Source: Vandiemenella viatica
Taxonomy: Eukaryota; Arthropoda; Insecta; Orthoptera; Morabidae
Direction: 5' to 3'
Assembly: GCA_031002005.1 (NCBI GenBank)
Contig: JARYHS010008074.1
Coordinates: forward strand, 268,151,930-268,215,929
DNA: 64,000 nucleotides
Shown here: piece by piece, positions 9,924 through 55,738 of the stretch
Numbering within the stretch: the first letter of the stretch is position 1
How the letters are laid out: every line of letters starts with the position of its first letter
The notes under the pieces: model-generated
What the model was told of the DNA's origin: nothing
Database searches by the model: none
Seen by the model: only the letters and a program-made list of their open reading frames with translations
Position numbers and translations under genes: made by a program

Positions 9924-12245
9924 ATGCATCAGCAAGTAAGGCATTGGGAAAAGTTGTGGAAGAAGAAAGCTAGACTTTTGTGTTCCTTAGTCTTCTTATT
10001 TATATTTCAGAACTCCAATATTGTACCTTGTTTTTGTCTGGTTGGCCATTACATTGCAAGCACTAAAGCTGACCATATTCTGCATCACACCAGTGTAGCA
10101 CTCCTCCGAGAATGCATTCAATATACTAGTTTTGAGCTTGACCGTAATGCACGAGAATTGTTTCACTGCCATTTGGTTCTTGCAACTACACTGTCTCCAA
10201 TCTCCTGGGACTGGGTAGATGCAGCTACCTCAGCACAAGGAAGAATCGAGTTTGACAGAACATCAGCCAGACATATTTCCAAATTCAACCGTCTGTCACA
10301 AGTGCAGAGGCCACCCAAGGAATTCCAAATGCACAGTAGTCAACCTTACTGGAACACAATGAATCATCTGAAAAAGTTTTGTCCAAAGGGCTGATCATTG
10401 CTCAGACTCCTAGTAAGATTCCTGTGAAAGACATTATCTGAGCAGTTGAAATAGCTGAATGCAAGCTTCCAGAAGATGTGACTGAAGAAATATGGAAGGA
10501 AACCTGCAGAGTTTGGGAAAAAGTCAACCTCCCCAAGTCCAACATCACAAAATCATAGTACCTCACTCTCAATGCGTTGTGTCAGAATGAAGAGATTGTA
10601 GTGTTGCCGGCGGACAAGGGGAATGCCACTGTCCTTCTTACATCTGGAATGTACAAGTCGAAGATAAGAAAACTGCTTGATGACACTGCTTACAGATCCA
10701 ACTTCGAGAATTGAGAGGAAGATGTCAGCTCTTTTAAAGAAGGCTGGATTTACATTGGACGTTATCAGGGGCCTTCGTCCACGTGTCGCCAGGCCACCCA
10801 GACTTTATGGCCTGCCCAAGATTCATAAGGAGGATGTGCCTTTACGCCCGATTGTAAGTACCATAGGTAGTCCCATGTATAATTTGGCTAAGCAGTTGTC
10901 TAGAATCCTTAATCTCTTTGTAGGTAATTGTCCTCACCATGTAAAGAATTTGGCGCAGTTTGTCAACACGCATCAAAAGATGTGGTTGTCAGAGTCTGAT
11001 ATCATGGTTAGTTTTGATGTTTTCCCACTGTTCACCACGGTTCCCTTGGGAGACACTCTGCAACTGTTATGCGGTATTCTTGAACCTAGCAAAGTTGACC
11101 TTTTCGAACTAGTCTCACGTCCACTTACTTCACCTATAGTGGGAGTTTTTATAGACAGACTGATGGTGTGGCACCATTGTCTCCCATGGTTCTCAATCTT
11201 ATTATGGATCATTTTGAAGATCAAGCAATTTAAGAGTCCATCATTAAGCCTACAAGTTTCTATCAATATGTAGACGATACGTTTGTCGTTTGGCCACATG
11301 GGATCCATAATTTTTATGAATTTTTAGACCACCTCAATGGAATTCTTGCAAATATCAGATTCACAATGGAGCTAGAGGAGAATGGTAGCTTGCCCTACCA
11401 ATACATTCTGATCTGGCAGTGACCTGATGCAACACTTTCGCACAGTGTGTACAGAAAAACTACTCACACGGACCGCTACTTATACGCCTTAAGCTTCCAC
11501 CATCCGGCACAGAATAACACATTGTTTTACATGTTGATACACAGACCAAGGGAGATTTCAGATGCTGACAATCTGCTGGCCATACTTGAACACCTCTGCC
11601 ATACCTTCATACTCAATGGATACCCAATCCGATTGATAGAACGGGGCCACTTCGAAATAAGCCAGATAAAAATCCAATTGAGCAAGAACAACAGCATAAG
11701 GATCTTACCTTCATCCCATATGCAGGGAACATCTCTCGGAAAATAGGTAGAATATTGGCACGACACGGAATAAAGAGCATTTTCTGACCTCCTGCCAAAA
11801 TCCGTGATTTGATACGTTCTGTGAAAGATGATTTGGGATTAAAAACACCGGGAGTCTATAGCATACCGTGCCAATGTAGTGTGTGTTATATTGCCCCCTC
11901 CATCCGTACCATCAAGACCCAGGTGACTGAACATCAGCGCAACATCCGGCTGTTTCAGCTGTAAAAATCAGCCGTGGCACAACACATGATCGAAAATGGC
12001 CACAGAACGAACTTCAATAATGTGAAAGTTCTACCTATGTGTTCTTTCTTCTGGGAGTCTGTCATTAAAGAAGCCATTGAGATACGTCTGAACCATAATA
12101 ATGTGAACAGGGACATGGGTCTGTGGCTTAGTGACGCGTGGAAACCAGCTTTTTCAAAAACAACCACGTATTTCACTGATGGATGGTAGGATGTCGGCGG
12201 CAGATCTGTCCTATCCCGTCTACAGCTGATTCCAGAGCCAACCAA
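9924..12245 (+). pseudogene. Penelope-like element ORF: RT plus GIY-YIG endonuclease
   Basis: The N-terminal part (9924-10394) leads to VLPADKGNATVLLT near 10600, then RLYGLPKIHKEDVPLRPIVS and GSPMYNLAKQLSRIL (10677-11273), IMVSFDVFPLFTTVPLGDTL (RT motif A) and, after a frame slip, FYQYVDDTFVVWPHG near 11265 with the catalytic YVDD. Next come YRKTTHTDRYLYALSFHHPAQ and NGYPIRLIER, then a GIY-YIG-like block GVYSIPCQCSVCYIA near 11850 and SAVAQHMIENGHRTNF near 11970. This RT plus GIY-YIG order defines canonical Penelope-like elements. Many stops and frameshifts make it dead. Confidence 0.88.
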
Positions 12246-22154: not shown

Positions 22155-23960
22155 TATTTCTATAAGGTATTTTTTTATCACAAGCCTATATCTTCCTTCA
22201 TACTTAACCAAAATCAATGAATGAGGTGTCACTTTAACGCTTATGGTCTCCACTTTGATCACATCATATTTTAAGAAAGAAAGATTTCGGAACTCGACCC
22301 ATAAAGGGCAAAAATGTCAATATGTCTAAAATGATGTTTTCTGTGTTACGATTCATTTATCTCCCTGGATACCTAACTGAAATCGTTTGATGAAGTATCA
22401 TTTTAAAGATTAAGATCTCCGCTTTTGTGACGTCATATACTAAGACAAGAAGTTTTCGTAATTCGACCCTTAAAGGGCAAAAGTATCAATATTTTTGCAT
22501 TGCGTTTTTGTGTCACAAGCCATTTATCTCACTTCATACCTAACCAATATAGATAAATGAGGTATCATATTAAAGAATAAGGTCTCCGCCATGGTAACAT
22601 TATATTTTAAGAAAAGAATTATTCGTAATTCGACTCTTAAAGGACAAAAACGTCAATTTTTCTAAAATACGTTTTTTGTGCCTCAGGTCATTTATCTCCC
22701 TAGATATCTAACCAAAAACCAGTAAGATTATGAGGAGTAATGTCGCAGCTTTGGCTTAAGAAAGAAGTTTTTTGCAATTCATCCCTTAAAGAGAAAAAGT
22801 ATAAATGGTTCCACAGCGCATTTTTGTGTCACGAGCTATTTATCACCCTTCATATCTAACCGATATACATAAATGAGGTATCATATTAAAGACTATGGCC
22901 TCTGCCATGGTAACATTATATTTTAAGAAAGAAATTTTTCATAATTCGACCCTGAAAGGGCAAAAATGTCGAATTTTCTAAAATATGTTTTTTGTGACTC
23001 CAGCCATTTATCTTTATGGATATCTAACCAAAATTGATAAGTCAAGTAATTATGAGGAGTAATGTCTCAGCTTTGGTGACATCATATTTTAAAAAAAGAA
23101 GTTTTTTTTTAATTCAACCCTCAAAGGGTAAAAGTATAAATGTTTCTACAACGCATTTTTGGGTCATGAGCCATTTATCTCCATTAATATCTAACCAAAA
23201 TAGATAAATGTGGTATCATTGTAATAATTAAGGTTTCCGCTGTGGTAACATTTTAGAATTGAATTTTTCTGGATTGAACTCTTAAAGGGCATAAATATCA
23301 GTATTTCTAAAATGCCTTTTTTTGTGTCTGGAGTCATTTATCTCCCTTGATAATTAAACAAAATGATAAACGAGGTATGATTTTAAAGATTGAGGTCTTC
23401 ATAAGGTCTTAGGTTCTGCTAACCACATTTTAAGAAAGAAATTTTTTAAAAATCTAACCTTAGAGGGCAAAAGTATTAATATTTCTATAACACATTTTTC
23501 AGTTTCAAACTATCTATTTCCCTTGATACACAACCAAAATTAATAAATGAGGTATTGTTTTAAATATTAAATTATCCACTTTGGTCACATCATTTTTTAA
23601 GAAAAAACTTTCTCTATAAAGTTCAACCCTTTAGGGGCAAAAATATCATCCTTTTTTTTTTTTTTAACTCGCTTGATAACTAACTGAAATTGCTAAATGA
23701 GGTATCATTTTAAAGACCAAGGTGGCTGCTTTGGTCACACCATATTTTATAAAAGATTTTTCTTGGAATTCGACCCTTAAAGGGCAAAAGTATCAATAAT
23801 ATTTCTACAGCGTGTTTTTTTTATTATTATTATTACAAGCCATTTATCAACTTTGATACCTAGCCGTAATCGATAAATATATCGTTTTAAAGATTAAGGT
23901 CTCCAGTTAGGTAAAATGATAAATTAAGAGAGAATTTTTTGGAATTTGGTGCTTAAAGTG
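22155..23960. repeat. tandem satellite array, units of about 166 bp
   Basis: About eleven diverged tandem units. Recurring anchors (GAGGTATCAT-like) lie at about 22223, 22392, 22559, 22732, 22875, 23054, 23210, 23372, 23549, 23699 and 23879, so spacing is 143-180 bp. Each unit also carries TTTAAGAAAGAA, a palindrome-rich CGACCCTTAAAGGGCAAAA, and CATTTATCTCCCTTGATA. Units are diverged, with homopolymer growth in T-runs, indicating an old array. Two neighbouring pairs (22559-22874 and 22875-23209) resemble each other more than their neighbours, a dimeric higher-order pattern. No coding. Confidence 0.88.
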
Positions 23961-33997: not shown

Positions 33998-34798
33998 TGC
34001 AACTAAGGAAAATGGAAGCGGCTTCTAGGCGATATAAATAAGAAAAGAAAGGGAAATTAACCCACCACATACCAAAGTGGACGGATGCGATGAGAGAACA
34101 CTAATTCTGACAAACAACTACACAATATTTCGGCATATGCCTTGCTCACAAATAGAAAAAACGGGCCATTAGGCTCGGAACATGTTTACACAACGAACGT
34201 TACCTAATGACTAACCATGTTGTGGTGGGGGGGGGGGATGGATAAGGAGTAGACTATCGATATCGGTATACAATGTCTGAGATAATATATTTAATATTTT
34301 GGCAGGCGATGGTAAAATGAGCAAATGTAGTAATGGTACGGTATAAACATGGGGGAAAAAAAAAAATTAGTGATTTAACGGTGGTTAAGTCCAGGTGGGT
34401 GTCTTGTATCCAGGATATTCTGGTACGCTAGTTCCCATCTCCGGAGTTCTGCTGCAGTGGTGCTGTCAGGGAAAACTCTGACTGCTCTCACAGTGAAACA
34501 GTCGTTGAGGTTGTTGGAATCATGGCTATTGGCATGTTCTGGCACTGGAAGGTACAGACATTGTATACCAATATCGATAGTCTACTCCTTATTCGTCCCC
34601 CCCCCCCACCACAACACGGTTAGTCATTAGGTAACGTTCGTTGTGCACACACGTTCCGAGCCTAATGGCCCGTTTTTTCTATTTGTGAGCAAGGTATATG
34701 CCGAAATATTGTGTAGTTGTTTGACAGCATTAGTGTTCTCTCATCGCATCCATCCACTTTGGTATGTGGTGGGTTAATTTCCCTTTCTTTTCTTATTT
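33998..34798. mobile_element. long inverted-repeat (foldback) element, copy 1
   Basis: Two arms of about 240-290 bp are inverted copies: left 33998-34286, right 34555-34798, with a 268-bp loop. The left arm starts TGCAACTAAGGAAAATGG; the right arm lacks the matching last 40 bp. Direct repeats TTATATTAGTGT (33986-33997, 34799-34810) look like a 12-bp TSD. Long and variable TSDs with one truncated arm suggest target-primed insertion (Penelope- or LINE-like) rather than cut-and-paste. A second copy is at 55362-55738. Confidence 0.8.
34375..34581 (-). other. conserved-looking ORF in the foldback loop (69 codons, no ATG)
   Basis: An uninterrupted minus frame between stops contains YLPVPEHANSHDSNNL, DCFTVRAVRVFPDSTTAAEL and RRWELAYQNILDTRHPPGLN before TAA at 34375-34377. 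Amino-acid composition is protein-like and lacks the low complexity of the surroundings. I do not recognise the family. It may be the C-terminal exon-like remnant of the parent element from which the foldback was derived. It lies wholly in the loop and the inner edge of the right arm. Confidence 0.45.
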
Positions 34799-34810
34799 TT
34801 ATATTAGTGT

Positions 34811-44236: not shown

Positions 44237-44240
44237 AGTG

Positions 44241-44937
44241 TGTAACGGGTACTCATCGCTATTCGTGTTTGTATAGTTAAAAGTTCGTTGAAGCAATGGA
44301 GCAGCTACCCTTCCTAACACGATTTTTCTTAATCTTTCTTCCACCACTAATTACTCTTTTAATTAAAGGTTCGTTTTGCCGTGCGGTCGCCAGTCTTTCG
44401 GCTATGCTAATTGGTTAATTAAAGTCACAGAAGAAGAACACATATGCGTACTAGTTTTCGTAGATTTATTCCTCTGAGACTACACAGTCAACAAGCATGC
44501 CACCAGACAATAATACTAATGTTTCTTCGTCACCGAAGATAGCAGATTCAAGTACAGTCAAAAGGATAAATAAGCAGTGAGCACAATTCTCGAAACTAAT
44601 TAACAAACAATCGCCATAGTCCGATTCTGCAGTAGTTTACTAAACACAGTTTATATTGAATCAGGTCACTCGGAAGAACCTTCATAGTCCAACATATACT
44701 TTAGCACACATCCCACAGTGTTCTTTAGTACGGAACACACGCCAAGCGGCCGTACGATGTATTTACGGGATAAACACACTGCCGTAAACCTTCCGCTCCC
44801 GCCGGCTGTTCCGTACATTACCACTGACAATCACTGACTCCCCCGCTCGGCGCTCCCCCACCGCCAAAGACCTTACATACCTCTCAGATTACACTATCCA
44901 CTCCAAATATAACCGTAACGTTCATGGTTACGTTACA
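44241..44937 (-). repeat. 3' LTR of the pol-less element
   Basis: 697 bp, same sequence as 49649-50342 apart from about four positions. On the minus strand it directly follows a polypurine tract. Confidence 0.93.
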
Positions 44938-44948
44938 CCCCCACCGTT
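44938..44948 (-). other. polypurine tract of the pol-less element
   Basis: Minus-strand CGGTGGGGG directly precedes TGTAACG of the 3' LTR, the expected position for plus-strand priming. Confidence 0.65.
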
Positions 44949-45984
44949 ACAATGTGGCAAAAGTCGGCATTGACAAAGCACCGACTTTTGTCATCACAAA
45001 CCACACTTGTTCACATATACATAGAAACATGTTACAAAAAAATACAAGATTAAATGTTTACCAAACATAAAGGGAAGTCTGGGTGGCTGCTTGCTTATCC
45101 TTAAACTAACATAATTACATACACATTAAGAATAACACACACAGTCTGAAACTGCATGAAACAAATCATCAAACCTTTCAATGTCCATATGTCCTTGCTT
45201 AGATCCATGACATATAACCAAGAAATTACAAATTGAGTTACAATATATTTTGACAACAATTTTCCCTCTCTTTTTTCTGATGTATGACACATGCACTGAA
45301 TCGTGCCTTGTTTACTTCGCCAGTGCACTGACAGTGTGCCCTGCTCAGGCAGGTGCCTCATTCACTGACTGTTGTACACCAACACTGATCACTCCACCCG
45401 CGGAAAGACGCAAACTGACATTACGCTGCGCCACACTTAAATCATCTTAACACTTTAATGAAAGGGAAAACCGCACTTCTAAGTACATTGTCCCGCCTCG
45501 GGGCTAAAATTACTGGGAAACACAAACCAGCAAGAATGCCTTCCGCAACTGTGTATTAATCCTACGTGGGTCACCAATCTGTACCCAACTACTAAAAGTC
45601 CTTTCCCCACTAACTTATTGACACAGCCTCTTACAAATTCTAATTGCGACTGCGATTGATTGTTACAAGAAACTACTGAAAACTTACTTAAACCATGGCA
45701 ACACTTAAAGCTTGGAGGTGCAGTAGATGCGACAGTGCTGTGAGGTGGGCCCCTCTATCCGGTGCCTGCACCAAAACAAACCGTATGCGGGTCGCTAATC
45801 TGCGCACAACCTCAAAAGACATTTGATACAACAACTGTACAATACCATAGAAGAAATAATTGTGATGACCAAACACCCTGAAAACCTAAACCTACCATAA
45901 CGATAAGGCATTTATGCATGGATGTTTCCATCATGCGCAGTGAGGCAACTGAAGACTGTACCTCACCCCCTCCACCTAAAGTAC
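44949..45984 (-). other. 3' noncoding region of the pol-less element
   Basis: About 1.05 kb with no supported coding. Two related blocks, near 45560-45610 and 45785-45840, read on the minus strand as CAGATTGGTGACCCACG and CAGATTAGCGACCCGC, preceded by similar text (GACTTTTAGTAGTTG; GTCTTTTGAGGTTG). They resemble LTR-end/primer-site junctions, so this region may hold remnants of other LTR elements captured by the element. Confidence 0.5.
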
Positions 45985-46887
45985 CTACTTCTTTTTCTTT
46001 ACAATATTCCTTCCTTCACCAAACAGCATTAAACCCCGCTTCTTCTTACGCTTCTTCCAACTCTCTTCTCTTCCTCCTCCTTTCTTCTTATTTACATTCT
46101 TTGCTTCATCATATAACCGTAACTTCTTCCTGCGCCTCTTCCAACTTTCTTCTCTCAGAAAATACCATTCTTCTGGCTTTACATAGTATCCTCTATTCTG
46201 CCTAGTCTCTTTCTTCCCATTAATTACCTTCTGTTTTGTGTCTTTACATAATGGATAGTTCTCATTTACCATCATACAATGTTTCACTTCGAGATTCCCT
46301 TCCGGCAAAGTTTCAGTCTTCACTGTTTCTGTCTCCTGAAGTGTTTCTTCCACCTCAAGGACTGCTTCTCGCTGTCTTCCATCTTCTTCTACTGACCTTA
46401 TTTCTTCTTTTACTACAGTATCTTTCTTAACAATTTTGTCGTCAGTCACACAAGCCTTCTCCTGCTCATCTGGCTCACAAACATCATTTTTATTCACAGT
46501 TTCTCTTCCATTTGATCTATAAGTTAGTTCTGAAATTATCTTTGCCTTTTCTTGTCCGAACCACCTTATCTCCTTCCAACTTGACCACTCTTCTGACGAG
46601 TCGTCACTCTCCTCCTCATGAATGCGCGCTTTAGCGATGAACAGTTTAGCATAATCTCCGACATTCGTCCAGGTCACTCTTTCCTCTCCTTGATCGTTTG
46701 TAATTGGTTCATTAGAAATCTCATCTTCATCTCGCCCCTTCATATTGTCTTCTGGTTCTTCTTTTGATAGCCTCGTATCATCTCCTGTCCCCGCCGAGGC
46801 TGAAGCAGTGACAGGCACTAGTTTACCTGTGGTGCACTCTCCACCACGGCCACCTGCACCTGATTTACTGACTCTCCTCGGGGCCAA
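45985..46887 (-). CDS. unrecognised second ORF of the pol-less element (about 300 aa)
   Basis: Open frame overlapping the last 70 bp of gag in the -1 frame. It starts at a TTG, with a TAA just upstream in frame, so it either uses frameshifting within the overlap or non-AUG initiation; I see no classic slippery heptamer. Composition: acidic first two thirds (SKEEPEDNMKGRDEDE, EESDDSSEEWSSW, EEDGRQREAVLEVEETLQET), then a strongly basic end with two diverged copies of a 27-residue unit (REESWKRRRKKLRLYDEAKN and REESWKKRKKKRGLMLFGEG), ending in KKKK. No protease DSG, RT or integrase motif. It stands where pol should be. Basic tail suggests nucleic-acid or nuclear targeting; inference. Confidence 0.75.
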   Translation of the reverse strand: MAPRRVSKSGAGGRGGECTTGKLVPVTASASAGTGDDTRLSKEEPEDNMKGRDEDEISNEPITNDQGEERVTWTNVGDYAKLFIAKARIHEEESDDSSEEWSSWKEIRWFGQEKAKIISELTYRSNGRETVNKNDVCEPDEQEKACVTDDKIVKKDTVVKEEIRSVEEDGRQREAVLEVEETLQETETVKTETLPEGNLEVKHCMMVNENYPLCKDTKQKVINGKKETRQNRGYYVKPEEWYFLREESWKRRRKKLRLYDEAKNVNKKKGGGREESWKKRKKKRGLMLFGEGRNIVKKKK

Positions 46888-48569
46888 TCGTCTCCAGTTG
46901 GTCCATTATATTCACCTCTAAATCCTCCTCCCCCTGTTCCACGACCACGTCCAAATCCTCCTCTCTGCCCACGGTTATTGTATCCGCCTCGATTCCTGTT
47001 ATCAAAATGAGGGTAGCTCTCCTGTTGCTGTTGGGAGTTACCTCTCTCCCCTTCCGATTGCAATTTCTCCGCGTAATATGTGGGTGTCCTCACCCCATAT
47101 TCTTTTTCTCTTATACTTTTCTCTTGTTCGTCCAGCCGACCCAACATCTTTATCGCCTCGTCAATGGTACATATATTATGGCTGACAAAGACAAGCTGTG
47201 TCGCCTCGGGCAAACGTGCACTAATCATCCGCACATATTCCCCTTCACTAAATGGTGAACTTAAATGTTTACAAGAATTAACACACTTCAAGAAAAAATT
47301 TTGCTGAGTGCCACCACCCGGCGAGTATGGTTTTCCCATCATTAAATTTCGCCGAACAGCAATTTGCCGGTCGATGGACCAGAAATGTTCCAAAAAAGCT
47401 GACTTAAACTCCTCAAACGTCTCGCAATTATCTGCAAACCGTTCTCCCCACATTCGGGCATTCCCCTTGATATGTTTACTGAACATTTCTATCTTCTTTC
47501 TTTCTACGGCCCTACAGAACGGCCCAAAATTTTCAAACTTCTTCACAAAATCAACTGGGTGTATCCCCCCATTATCACAAAAGTCCTCCCAGTCCACTTT
47601 CTCTTCTACCATGCACGCAGTGAGCGCATTCACATTTGGCAAGATTTGACATTTGACAACCTCTTCTCGCACAACTTGTGGAACTCGTAACTTTAGACTT
47701 TTTTCAATTTGCTTCTCTTGTAACTGTAACTTTTCATTCACCCACACTGCAGTGGAAGCCTTAACCTTTTCCACCTGACACGACAATTTCTCTACGCCGA
47801 CTGTTAAATGGTCAACTTCTTCTTTTACTACCGTGTATTTTTCGGTAAGGGTTTCTCCTAAAGTCTCCACCTTCGACAATCTTTCATCATGGTTATCTTC
47901 TATAAGCTCGACTGTTTTCTTTAGGGATTCCATATTTTGGTGTAAAACACTAGTTACTTGTTCGCAGTCTGAACGATACTGAGTCAATTTACAAGATATT
48001 TCAGCAGTTTGTTGTGCACAAAGTTCCCTATATTGTGTCAATTCTTCCCTAAACTGCCCTAATCGCGATTCAAAAGCATCCCGAAGACATTCGATACTCT
48101 CCTTATTTTCATTTAATTTAGATTCAAGCAAAATACTATTTTCATTTAATTTGGATGCAAGTGATTCATTTAATTTGGATTCAAGTGAAATACTATTTTC
48201 ATTTAATTTGGATTCAAGTGAAATACTATTTTCATTTAATTTGGATTCAAGTGAAATACTATTTTCATTTAATTTGGATTCAAGTGAAATCTTGTTTTCA
48301 TTGAATTTAGCTTCCAGAAAGGACTGAATTGACATGACAAATTGTCCCTGGAAAGCACAAAACATTTCCGACATGGACGCCTCATTACTTTCCCTAACCA
48401 CTTCTCTTGACTTGTCAACTTCTGATTCACTAGCAAAACTCGTCATCGACTGTAAATGATTAGACACAGTAAGGGAGGAATGATTAATGCCTACACTGGG
48501 TGCGTCACCAAGGGACTCACCTCCCAGCACCATCTCTCCATTCACACCAACCTCTACCTCAGATGCCAT
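46818..48569 (-). CDS. Gag of the pol-less LTR element (583 aa, intact)
   Basis: Intact frame. Residues about 85-160 hold tandem 11-residue repeats (ESKLNENSISL), then a long predicted coiled coil to about 290 (ELTQYRELCAQQTAEISCKL, KVKASTAVWVNEKLQLQEK). Residues about 320-480 match the retrotransposon gag/capsid fold: DFVKKFENFGPFC, MFSKHIKGNARMWGERFA, EFKSAFLEHFWS, ISARLPEA. The C-terminus is QQQQ then RG/GG-rich (NRGGYNNRGQRGGFGRGRG), apparently replacing a CCHC knuckle for RNA binding. The start ATG is 48569, shortly after the leader. It forms particles in the cytoplasm by family analogy. Confidence 0.88.
   Translation of the reverse strand: MASEVEVGVNGEMVLGGESLGDAPSVGINHSSLTVSNHLQSMTSFASESEVDKSREVVRESNEASMSEMFCAFQGQFVMSIQSFLEAKFNENKISLESKLNENSISLESKLNENSISLESKLNENSISLESKLNESLASKLNENSILLESKLNENKESIECLRDAFESRLGQFREELTQYRELCAQQTAEISCKLTQYRSDCEQVTSVLHQNMESLKKTVELIEDNHDERLSKVETLGETLTEKYTVVKEEVDHLTVGVEKLSCQVEKVKASTAVWVNEKLQLQEKQIEKSLKLRVPQVVREEVVKCQILPNVNALTACMVEEKVDWEDFCDNGGIHPVDFVKKFENFGPFCRAVERKKIEMFSKHIKGNARMWGERFADNCETFEEFKSAFLEHFWSIDRQIAVRRNLMMGKPYSPGGGTQQNFFLKCVNSCKHLSSPFSEGEYVRMISARLPEATQLVFVSHNICTIDEAIKMLGRLDEQEKSIREKEYGVRTPTYYAEKLQSEGERGNSQQQQESYPHFDNRNRGGYNNRGQRGGFGRGRGTGGGGFRGEYNGPTGDDWPRGESVNQVQVAVVESAPQVN
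48100..48310 (-). repeat. 33-bp minisatellite within gag
   Basis: Six to seven tandem units of 33 bp (TTTGGATTCAAGTGAAATAC-type on the plus strand) encode the 11-residue coiled-coil repeats. The central units are identical, one unit is shortened, and outer ones are diverged, indicating recent expansion in phase with the reading frame. Confidence 0.88.
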
Positions 48570-48815
48570 ATTACGAAATTATTTCACACAATAAATTCAA
48601 TCTTCCGTTGTAGAAAAGACAAGAAGTAACCAACGCCGTCAATCCAGCAAACAGAATACACCAGTATACATTAGCACAAAAAAAAAGGTAAAATTCTGTT
48701 TCCAAATCTCTTAACTACCAAACAAGATATACACCATGTCATAAAATACACTTTCAATTGAATACATACACTACTATCAATGACCAAAAAAATTACGGAA
48801 ACTCTAAAAAATTTA

Positions 48816-48863
<48 letters not shown>

Positions 48864-49648
48864 ATTTGCTAGGCAAATCTACCACAGTTGTCCGGCATTT
48901 CAACTTTAATAAGTTAACGAAAGAAAAGGTAAAAAAACCTCTGTTACTCAATATGCAAAAATAATAATAATTAATTTTTTTCTTAAAAAAAAAATCGCGA
49001 ATTATTCGTGCCGGTTTGTGCTTTTACAAAGACTGAAAAATAAATCTTGCACTTCTTTGGAAAATCAACAAAAAAATCTACAAATTAATTCGTTAACAGA
49101 AACTGACATAACTTGCCCCACATCAGAATAACATTAAGCTTGCATGCATAAAATTTGCAATCCGCATAGTCAGTAGCTCATTTGAAGATTCATTAATGCA
49201 AAAGAAATAATTACTACCGCGGAAATGTGATTCCAATCGAAACAGTAATTTTTTTATTATTATTATTTTAATGTCAGTTTGTGTCTTCCTTTAATTAAAA
49301 AAAATTGTTCGCACTTCCCTTTCGAAGAATCTCAGTTGCTGACCGCGCTGCCGTCGACCGCTATGACGCCGCGCCGCTTCTGCGTGCCCGCGTTGTTCCG
49401 CTGTCGCGTTGTTGCTCGGGCAAGGCTTCCCGTCAGACTGCGTTGATCGGTTCCGATCGTGAAAGCTCGGGTCCTCTCGTTTATTACATTGTTGTGCACT
49501 CGCCGCCTCGAAGTAGCCGTACCATCGCCGATTGTTGTCTTCCCGCTCTATTCACTGCTTATTATTTCCAGCACTTTTTTTTTTTTTATATTAATCACTG
49601 TCCGTCCTTAACAATTTTAACTGCAACTTGTCCTGTCACGTTGAGCCA
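48570..49648 (-). other. long leader of the pol-less element
   Basis: About 1.08 kb between the primer binding site and gag. It contains a GC-rich part (49330-49550) and an A-tract of 38 bases on the minus strand (T-run 48820-48857). A plus-strand open run (49305-49724) crosses into the LTR and is antisense, so I do not call it a gene. A leader this long could hold packaging or dimerisation signals needed for trans-mobilisation; that is inference. Confidence 0.6.
49631..49648 (-). other. primer binding site of the pol-less element
   Basis: Minus-strand TGGCTCAACGTGACAGGA abuts the 5' LTR. It begins TGG as expected for pairing with a tRNA CCA end and recalls the tRNA-Arg type used by mdg1/412-like gypsy elements. 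The exact tRNA is not established. Confidence 0.6.
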
Positions 49649-50342
49649 TGTAACGGGTACTCACGCTATTCGTGTTTGTATAGTTAAAAGTTCGTTGAAG
49701 CAATGGAGCAGCTACCCTTCCTAACACGATTTTTCTTAATCTTTCTTCCACCACTAATTACTCTTTTAATTAAAGGTTCGTTTTGCCGTGCGGTCGCCAG
49801 TCTTTCGGCTATGCTAATTGGTTAATTAAAGTCACAGAAGAAGAACACATATGCGTACTAGTTTTCGTAGATTTATTCCTCTGAGACTACACAGTCAACA
49901 AGCATGCCACCAGACAATAATACTAATGTTTCTTCGTCACCGAAGATAGCAGATTCAAGTACAGTCAAAAGATAAATAAGCAGTGAGCACAATTCTCGAA
50001 ACTAATTAACAAACAATCGCCATAGTCCGATTCTGCAGTAGTTTACTAAACACAGTTTATATTGAATCAGGTCACTCGGAAGAACCTTCATAGTCCAACA
50101 TATACTTTAGCACACATCCCACAGTGTTCTTTAGTACGGAACACACGCCAAGCGGCCGTACGATGTATTTACGGGATAAACACACTGCCGTAAACCTTCC
50201 GCTCCCGCCGGCTGTTCCGTACGTTACCACTGACAATCACTGACTCCCCCGCTCGGCGCTCCCCACCGCCAAAGACCTTACATACCTCTCAGATTACACT
50301 ATCCACTCCAAATATAACCGTAACGTTCATGGTTACGTTACA
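49649..50342 (-). repeat. 5' LTR of the pol-less element
   Basis: 694 bp, minus-strand start TGTAACGTAACCATGAACG and end ACCCGTTACA, so termini are TGTAACG/CGTTACA. Against the other LTR I see only about four differences, mostly single-base indels (ACTCACGC against ACTCATCGC; a GG against G; a C-run length; one A/G). It contains a GC-rich block CGCTCCCGCCGGC-like near 50205. Confidence 0.93.
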
Positions 50343-50346
50343 AGTG

Positions 50347-55361: not shown

Positions 55362-55738
55362 ATAAGAAAAGAAATTAACCCACCACATACCAAACTGGAC
55401 GGATTCAATGAGAGAACACTAAAACTGACAAACAACTACACAATATTTCGGCATCTGCCTTGCTCACAAATAGAAAAACGGGCCCTTAGGCTCAGAACGT
55501 GTGTGCACAATGAACGTTACCCAATGACTGGGGTAACGTTCGTTGTGCACACACGTTCCGAGCCTAATGGCCCGTTTTTCTATTTGTGAGCAAGGCAGAT
55601 GCCAAAATATTGTGTAGTTGTTTGTCATCTTTAGTGTTCTCTCATCGCATCCGTCCACTTTGGTATGTGGTGGGTTAATTTCCCTTTCTTTTCTTATTTA
55701 TATCGCCTAGAAGCCGCTTCCATTTTCCTTAGTTGCAT
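55362..55738. mobile_element. long inverted-repeat (foldback) element, copy 2 (377 bp)
   Basis: Arms match those of 33998-34798: AATTAACCCACCACATACC, GAGAGAACACTAA, CACAATATTTCGGCAT, TTGCTCACAAATAGAAAAA, ACGTTC. Here they meet almost directly (AATGACTGGGGTAACG at 55522), so the loop is gone. The right arm is complete to CCTTAGTTGCAT; the left arm lacks about 40 bp. Flanked by a perfect 15-bp duplication CAAATTAAGTTATTA (55347-55361, 55739-55753). Confidence 0.88.

What the first reader, a model, noticed from the sequence alone, without database searches (positions are those of the whole stretch)
44241..50342. Recently mobile LTR retrotransposon with gag plus an unknown ORF and no pol
LTRs of about 695 bp differ at roughly four positions and the AGTG TSDs are perfect, so the insertion is young. 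Gag is intact at 583 codons, yet no protease, RT, RNase H or integrase motif appears on either strand. In their place is a 301-codon ORF with an acidic body and a basic, internally duplicated tail. This looks like a non-autonomous element that kept its own Gag and gained a novel protein while relying on pol from a partner. Other gag-only families are known in plants (BARE-2-like derivatives in the reverse sense, and gag-retaining TRIM/LARD types), so the principle is established but this architecture with a second ORF is not one I recognise.
Basis: partly seen in the sequence, partly recalled or inferred. Interest (0 to 1): 0.9.

Follow-up and report, generated by a model that had tools for sequence, protein, structure and literature searches.

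The report
Gag-keeping, pol-less retroelement with chimeric ORF
This is one of more than a hundred related copies of a jumping DNA element that keeps its coat-protein gene but lacks its copying enzymes, carries a second gene patched together from two relatives, and is likely moved by enzymes from sister elements with the same ends.

Summary
Confirmed: a 6,102-bp minus-strand LTR element with one LTR substitution, perfect AGTG target duplications, a 583-codon gag, a second frame and no PR, RT, RH or IN. In the 3.72-Gb host assembly it is a family: ORF2 matches at 129 scored candidates (131 rows, 77 without a stop). Of the 30 best ORF2 loci, 30 carry gag and the ORF2 tail and 0 carry PR-IN. The partner exists: L050 has the same LTRs, PBS and PPT with a complete pol. 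ORF2 is a mosaic: pol's start (residues 1-51), a partly pol-like linker, then from residue 116 the tail of an orphan gene, X, carried by gag-less elements with the same LTRs; the junction is sharp. ORF2 lies in pol's -1 frame. Gag is under strong purifying selection (0.24); ORF2 weakly, not clearly distinct from neutral. Closest kind: gag-bearing non-autonomous LTR elements such as wheat Quinta. Movement in trans, frameshifting and any ORF2 function are inferred; the origin of X is unknown.

The parts
44241..50342 (-). whole element, 6,102 bp
   Evidence: LTR pair and TSDs
44237..44240 (.). target-site duplication AGTG
50343..50346 (.). target-site duplication AGTG
49649..50342 (-). 5' LTR of the element (694 bp), TGTAACG...CGTTACA
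44241..44937 (-). 3' LTR of the element (697 bp)
49630..49648 (-). primer-binding site TGGCTCAACGTGACAGGAC directly after the 5' LTR; identical in pol-bearing L050, X-bearing L073 and L074
   Evidence: the primer tRNA was not identified
44938..44945 (-). polypurine tract GGTGGGGG directly before the 3' LTR; identical in L050, L073, L074
46818..48569 (-). gag, 583 codons; coiled coil plus Arc/Ty3-type capsid domain, RGG-rich end
   Evidence: dN/dS 0.24 over 16 copies
46821..46827 (-). likely -1 frameshift site GGTAAAC directly before the gag stop TAG
   Evidence: 57 of 58 listed rows keep AAAC-TAG; in five pol-bearing copies the -1 frame opens only 13 nt before TAG; slippage itself inferred
45985..46905 (-). 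ORF2, open frame of 306 codons in the -1 frame of gag, no ATG before residue 55
46753..46905 (-). ORF2 residues 1-51: start of pol
   Evidence: 72.5% and 80% identical to L049 and L051 pol
46561..46752 (-). ORF2 residues 52-115: linker, its last 45 bp 91.1% identical to the L050 pol linker; SH3-like domain of pol missing
45988..46560 (-). ORF2 residues 116-306: tail of ORF X (acidic, then basic repeated tail)
   Evidence: L073 88.7-95.8% identical in three aligned pieces
45773..45984 (-). trailer after the ORF2 stop, shared with X elements; ends at the place where sister copies rejoin the integrase tail, which is deleted here

Best explanation
The window holds a young copy of a multi-copy, pol-less LTR retrotransposon family that encodes Gag plus a chimeric second frame, pol's own start joined to the tail of an orphan gene X, and that is likely copied in trans by pol-bearing sister elements with the same LTRs, primer site and polypurine tract. 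Shown: the family; the absence of PR-RT-RH-IN from the 30 best ORF2 loci; the pol-bearing sister; the gag-less X sister; and the sharp switch from pol-like linker to X tail inside ORF2. Inferred: the switch arose by template switching between co-packaged RNAs; ORF2 is made as a Gag-ORF2 fusion through pol's -1 frameshift site; the Gag that these copies keep under selection builds particles that take in Pol from the sister; and ORF2, acidic with a basic tail, is a Gag-linked extension with at most a weak role, perhaps in RNA binding.
For: Family: 129 of 1,646 ORF2 candidates scored, 131 rows, 77 without a stop; 30 of 30 best loci with gag and ORF2 tail, 0 of 30 with PR-IN. Partner: L050, same LTRs (94.7-97.4%), 1,316-codon pol with RVP, RVT_1, RNase H, integrase zinc-binding, rve and SH3 domains; a second copy with 1,317-codon pol and open 564-codon gag (L077). 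Cis signals: PBS and PPT identical in window, L050, L073 and L074. Mosaic: left of the junction 44 of 60 bases match L050 and 16 of 60 match L073, right of it 21 and 55 of 60. Gag selection: dN/dS 0.24, bootstrap 0.16-0.34, 16 pol-less copies. Shared -1 frame and site.
Against: No RNA, protein or insertion data: movement in trans and frameshifting are untested. P-site pairing of GGTAAAC after a -1 slip would be poor (recalled rule), though L055/L077 have GTTAAAC and L071 GGAAAAC. L050's gag frame is broken, and 4 of the 5 pol-bearing copies whose gag region I saw (L049-L052) have no whole gag, so a fully intact pol-bearing copy was glimpsed only in two separate stretches of one locus. ORF2 dN/dS 0.66 includes 1; against X of L073 it is about 1. 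The gag tree puts pol-bearing A gags inside the pol-less ones, so which kind gave rise to which is open.
Confidence: 0.82

Rival explanations
1. The window copy is merely one internal-deletion copy of a pol-bearing element, with no family of its own.
For: Pol-bearing copies with the same LTRs exist (L050, L052); L052 shows that one-off deletions occur.
Against: 13 of the 30 best ORF2 loci, the window's own included, align without a break across the same deletion point; 77 of 131 ORF2 rows have no stop; the ORF2 tail is absent from pol of L049, L050 and L051, so deletion alone cannot make ORF2.
Confidence: 0.04
2. ORF2 is a passenger: its frame is open only because the copies are young, and selection acts on Gag and the cis signals alone.
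For: dN/dS 0.66 with bootstrap 0.40-1.14; fixed A-B differences in the tail 6 S / 12 N, ratio 0.48, P 0.12; about 1 against X of L073; 54 of 131 rows carry a stop; model confidence low, no fold or homologue.
Against: Polymorphism ratio 0.64, P 0.026; tail diversity 0.015-0.016 against 0.034 in the adjoining trailer over 30 copies, though these copies were picked by ORF2 score; frame kept in two LTR types.
Confidence: 0.45
3. ORF X, and with it the ORF2 tail, is a captured host gene, as in maize Bs1.
For: X is an uninterrupted 532-codon frame in L075 with its own stop and a ~200-bp trailer before the element sequence resumes, which looks like a captured transcript end.
Against: No homologue among 5.8 billion proteins and no Pfam match; X shares pol-like pieces in L076; the search of the host genome for X outside the elements did not complete.
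Confidence: 0.35
4. The family is moved by Pol of the sister subfamily B or of an unrelated element, not by L050-type copies.
For: Subfamily B also has pol-less copies with the ORF2 tail (L039, L040, L042), so the module works with two LTR types.
Against: B elements have other LTRs, PBS and PPT; L050 matches the window in all three.
Confidence: 0.1

Closest known systems
RLG_Quinta / RLG_Cereba, einkorn wheat (PMC11302176; passages seen)
   Same: Non-autonomous Ty3-type element with Gag plus a domain of unknown function, no RT or INT; partner with identical PBS and conserved LTR ends; recombination in gag.
   Different: Plant, centromeric; DUF1's origin not described in the passages I saw; here the second frame is in pol's -1 frame and can be split into pol start plus tail of a third element.
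eRTBVL2 / ePVCVL pararetroviruses of grasses (PMC5491270; passages seen)
   Same: A domain of unknown function (SFKTE) stands in place of RT/RH and came from another non-autonomous partner by recombination.
   Different: Endogenous pararetroviruses of plants, not LTR elements.
TR-GAG elements (PMC8704663; passages seen)
   Same: LTRs and an intact gag, no pol; one shown to transpose in Arabidopsis.
   Different: A single ORF; no second frame.
Maize Bs1 (review PMC13317346; passages seen)
   Same: LTR element with a hybrid ORF from captured segments.
   Different: Segments there match named host genes; X and the ORF2 tail match nothing known.
CM-gag of Culex pipiens (title in the reference list of PMC3286476)
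   Same: Insect repeated element whose title says it contains only a gag gene.
   Different: Paper not read; title mentions no second frame.

Membership tests
Non-autonomous partner in an autonomous/non-autonomous LTR pair (criteria as in PMC11302176, passages) | no RT or INT of its own | tested here: met
Non-autonomous partner in an autonomous/non-autonomous LTR pair | PBS identical to that of the pol-bearing partner | tested here: met
   window and L050
Non-autonomous partner in an autonomous/non-autonomous LTR pair | conserved LTR ends and PPT | tested here: met
Non-autonomous partner in an autonomous/non-autonomous LTR pair | mobilised by the partner's proteins | not testable with these tools
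   no expression or insertion data
Ty3-type (mdg4) LTR retrotransposon | pol order PR-RT-RH-IN in the lineage | tested here: met
   L050, Pfam; in the partner, not in the window copy
Ty3-type (mdg4) LTR retrotransposon | Ty3/Arc-type capsid in Gag | tested here: met
   Foldseek 6gse E 2.7e-4; Pfam Ty3_capsid below cut-off
TR-GAG | single ORF, coding Gag | tested here: not met
   second frame of 306 codons
LARD or TRIM | no coding sequence between the LTRs (recalled definition) | tested here: not met
   gag open for 583 codons
Bs1-like element with transduced host genes | foreign segment matches a host gene | tested here: inconclusive
   no homologue of X or ORF2 among database proteins; the host-genome search for X did not complete

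The most novel reading that the evidence does not exclude
A genome, likely of an animal, runs a three-member retroelement consortium: one element supplies Pol, one supplies Gag with a frameshifted hybrid tail, and one supplies no particle protein but an orphan protein, X, whose tail has spread into the Gag element. X and the ORF2 tail would be an accessory factor of pol-less elements, without a relative in the databases searched, that is fused to Gag to bias packaging or Pol use towards the satellites.
Probability: 0.22. Interest if true: 0.75.

Novelty: new variant of a known kind. Interest (0 to 1): 0.5.

Why it matters
The pol-less LTR elements with Gag that I found in print are mostly from plants. 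Here the pol-less element, its pol-bearing partner and a gag-less third element lie in one genome with the same LTRs, and the breakpoint that built the new frame can be read to within a few bases. That makes two open questions testable: whether satellites pay for Pol with Gag, and whether new protein genes arise by template switching between such partners. Strong selection on Gag in pol-less copies is the clearest sign that their Gag is used.

Tried and rejected
Tried without result: homologues of ORF2, Gag (one distant relative, P0001) and X in the protein database; IMG/VR scans with Gag and ORF2 (none); PDB by sequence (none; two chance-level hits); ORF2 model against PDB (nothing at E 0.001; mean pLDDT 48.8); tRNA and Rfam scans of the window (none). 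The tRNA behind the PBS was not identified; L052 has another PBS.

Rejected: one-off deletion; ORF2 as a wholly foreign protein. I first took ORF2's body for the pol linker of an unsampled subfamily; of 20 pol N-terminal stretches fetched, several match residues 1-51 and a few the linker motif, none the tail, and L073 supplied the tail. I considered that pol-bearing copies lack a whole gag and need the satellite's: true of L049-L052, but L077 is open.

Rows dropped: ORF2 dN/dS used 28 of L010-L038 plus the window (L038 left out for a 3-bp gap, L009 as the window itself, B-type loci kept apart). Gag dN/dS used the 15 gap-free A-type loci plus the window. The gag tree left out L001, L002, L009, L043 as duplicates and L030, L031, L060 as too short. 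ORF2 loci are the best by score, which favours intact frames and lowers non-synonymous change.
Full report
What is there. The element lies on the minus strand at 44241-50342. Its LTRs differ by one substitution and three gap openings over 697 columns, the target duplication AGTG is perfect, gag is open for 583 codons, and a second frame of 306 codons follows in the -1 frame, overlapping gag by 88 nt. I read the stop-to-stop frames of 40 residues or more in the internal region and saw no protease, RT, RNase H or integrase; tblastn of two complete relatives' pol frames against the whole window finds only the first residues of pol, at the start of ORF2. Pfam gives a sub-threshold Ty3_capsid match for Gag and nothing for ORF2. 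The Gag model (two-sequence alignment, mean pLDDT 60) matches the Arc capsid domain by Foldseek, E 2.7e-4.

It is a family. The host assembly has 3.72 Gb in 8,965 contigs and no name here; the organism is likely an arthropod, which I infer from the element type and did not establish. The LTR search scored 40 of 1,073 candidates, all 97-100% identical. The ORF2 protein search scored 129 of 1,646 candidates and listed 131 rows; 77 of the 131 have no stop (counted by hand). Of the 30 best ORF2 loci (the window's own among them), 30 carry gag and the ORF2 tail module, 0 carry DNA of PR-to-IN, 16 keep a remnant of the integrase tail and 14 do not. Of these 14, 13 (the window's own included) align without a break across the window's deletion point; L023 has a larger gap there. 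A deletion shared in this way points to descent from one another.

The partner exists. The integrase-tail search scored 150 of 7,373 candidates; eight rows have open frames above 1,000 codons. L050 is 9,042 bp long and carries the window's LTRs (94.7-97.4%), target duplication ACTT, a gag whose frame is broken upstream, and one 1,316-codon pol frame with RVP, RVT_1, RNase H, integrase zinc-binding, rve and SH3 domains. Its PBS and PPT are those of the window element. Another locus has a 1,317-codon pol and an open 564-codon gag (L077). L052 has the same LTRs, 99.86% identical to each other, and a deletion that joins gag to RT. L051 belongs to a sister subfamily, B, with other LTRs, PBS and PPT and a 1,367-codon pol; L049 (1,352 codons) groups with it by pol, with no LTR pair seen in the stretch fetched.

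What ORF2 is. Residues 1-51 are the start of pol (72.5% and 80% identical to L049 and L051). Pol of the pol-bearing copies then has an SH3-like domain that ORF2 lacks. The last 45 bp of the ORF2 linker are 91.1% identical to the L050 linker and end at window position 46561; about 75 bp of the linker remain unexplained. From 46560 on, the sequence matches ORF X of a third element. L073 is a 4.8-kb copy with the window's LTRs (98.3-98.9%; its own pair 99.57%), PBS, PPT and target duplication CACT, no gag, and an ORF X interrupted by one stop. L075 holds an uninterrupted X of 532 codons; L076 holds a 573-codon open stretch of X, cut by the fetch at its start, with an extra SH3 segment 84.9% identical to L050 pol. 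At the switch, 44 of 60 bases to the left match L050 and 16 of 60 match L073; to the right the figures are 21 and 55 of 60. X and the pol-less copies also share a stop codon and about 200 bp of trailer, after which copies such as L012 rejoin the integrase tail at TTTGTTTTGGT. In LTR type B the tail module instead runs in frame into the integrase SH3 domain (L039, L040). L033 is a further recombinant, with part of X's start joined to gag. Of the seven elements behind the eight best LTR loci, four carry X (two seen by X's start, two by the larger stretches L073 and L076), one is the window copy, one starts with gag and one shows only its 3' end. Template switching between co-packaged RNAs is the ordinary explanation for such mosaics (established for retroelements; inferred here).

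Expression. ORF2 has no ATG before residue 55. In five pol-bearing copies (L050, L054, L055/L077, L065, L069) the -1 frame opens only 13 nt before the gag stop, so a -1 slip would have to fall in GCCACAGGTAAAC or its variant; 57 of the 58 listed rows keep AAAC-TAG (L062 does not; the listing allowed two mismatches and holds overlapping loci), with GTTAAAC in L055/L077 and GGAAAAC in L071. ORF2 uses the same site and frame. That it is made as a Gag-ORF2 fusion is inferred.

Selection. Over gag codons 166-555 and 16 pol-less copies dN/dS is 0.24 (bootstrap 0.16-0.34); window against L014, another pol-less copy, gives 0.19 (P 7.6e-9). ORF2 gives 0.66 (0.40-1.14) over 29 copies. Fixed differences between LTR types A and B in the tail module are 6 synonymous and 12 non-synonymous (ratio 0.48, P 0.12); the polymorphism ratio is 0.64 (P 0.026). 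ORF2 tail against X of L073 is about 1. Tail diversity is 0.015-0.016 against 0.034 in the trailer over 30 copies. The ORF2 copies were picked by score, which lowers apparent non-synonymous change. So Gag is very likely used, and ORF2 is at best weakly constrained. The gag tree (436 columns, 56 rows) puts the eight pol-bearing A rows in one clade (97/90) inside the pol-less rows, with many weak forks; gag has probably moved between element kinds, and the direction is open.

Comparison. Gag-bearing pol-less elements with a pol-bearing partner are known. The nearest is wheat RLG_Quinta: gag, a domain of unknown function, no RT or INT, PBS and LTR ends shared with RLG_Cereba (PMC11302176, passages). 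The pararetrovirus eRTBVL2 has an unknown domain in place of RT/RH that came from another non-autonomous partner (PMC5491270, passages). TR-GAGs have Gag alone (PMC8704663, passages). Maize Bs1 has a hybrid ORF from transduced host genes (PMC13317346, passages). A gag-only mosquito element, CM-gag, is cited in PMC3286476 (reference title only). I saw no report of this layout in an insect in the listings of searches (15 of 125 papers listed; 10 of 18; 0 papers); these cover only the open-licence library. Hence: new variant of a known kind.

Limits.

Noticed in passing
L050 pol residues ~41-130; also L049, L051 and X of L076: Pol of the pol-bearing copies has a second SH3/GPF-like domain near its N-terminus that resembles the integrase C-terminal SH3 (29.7% identity over 91 columns, E 3.7e-10), as if the integrase tail had been duplicated to the start of pol. 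The copy in X scores SH3_Tf2-1 below the cut-off.
   Followed up: partly
L033 1-530: A further recombinant: part of the X start (98.8% identical) joined to gag from about codon 232, followed by ORF2.
   Followed up: partly
L052, first bases after the 5' LTR: Same LTRs but another primer site, TGGCGACCGTGACAGGAC, against TGGCTCAACGTGACAGGAC in the window, L050, L073 and L074; a primer change within one LTR family.
   Followed up: no
48104-48308: Gag holds a 33-bp tandem repeat, 6.5 copies, read as LNENSISLESK-like units of a predicted coiled coil; its length differs between copies.
   Followed up: no
rows (host genome): Among the 54 ORF2 rows with stops, TGA is by far the commonest type; not tested for CpG decay or editing.
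   Followed up: no
10668-11273: An open stretch that reads like a Penelope-type reverse transcriptase (recalled motif); Pfam finds nothing at E 0.1.
   Followed up: partly
22155-23648: Tandem array of a ~167-bp unit, about 9 copies, 66% matches.
   Followed up: no
55364-55690 and 33998-34802: A palindromic repeat with related inverted arms elsewhere in the window, like a foldback element.
   Followed up: no
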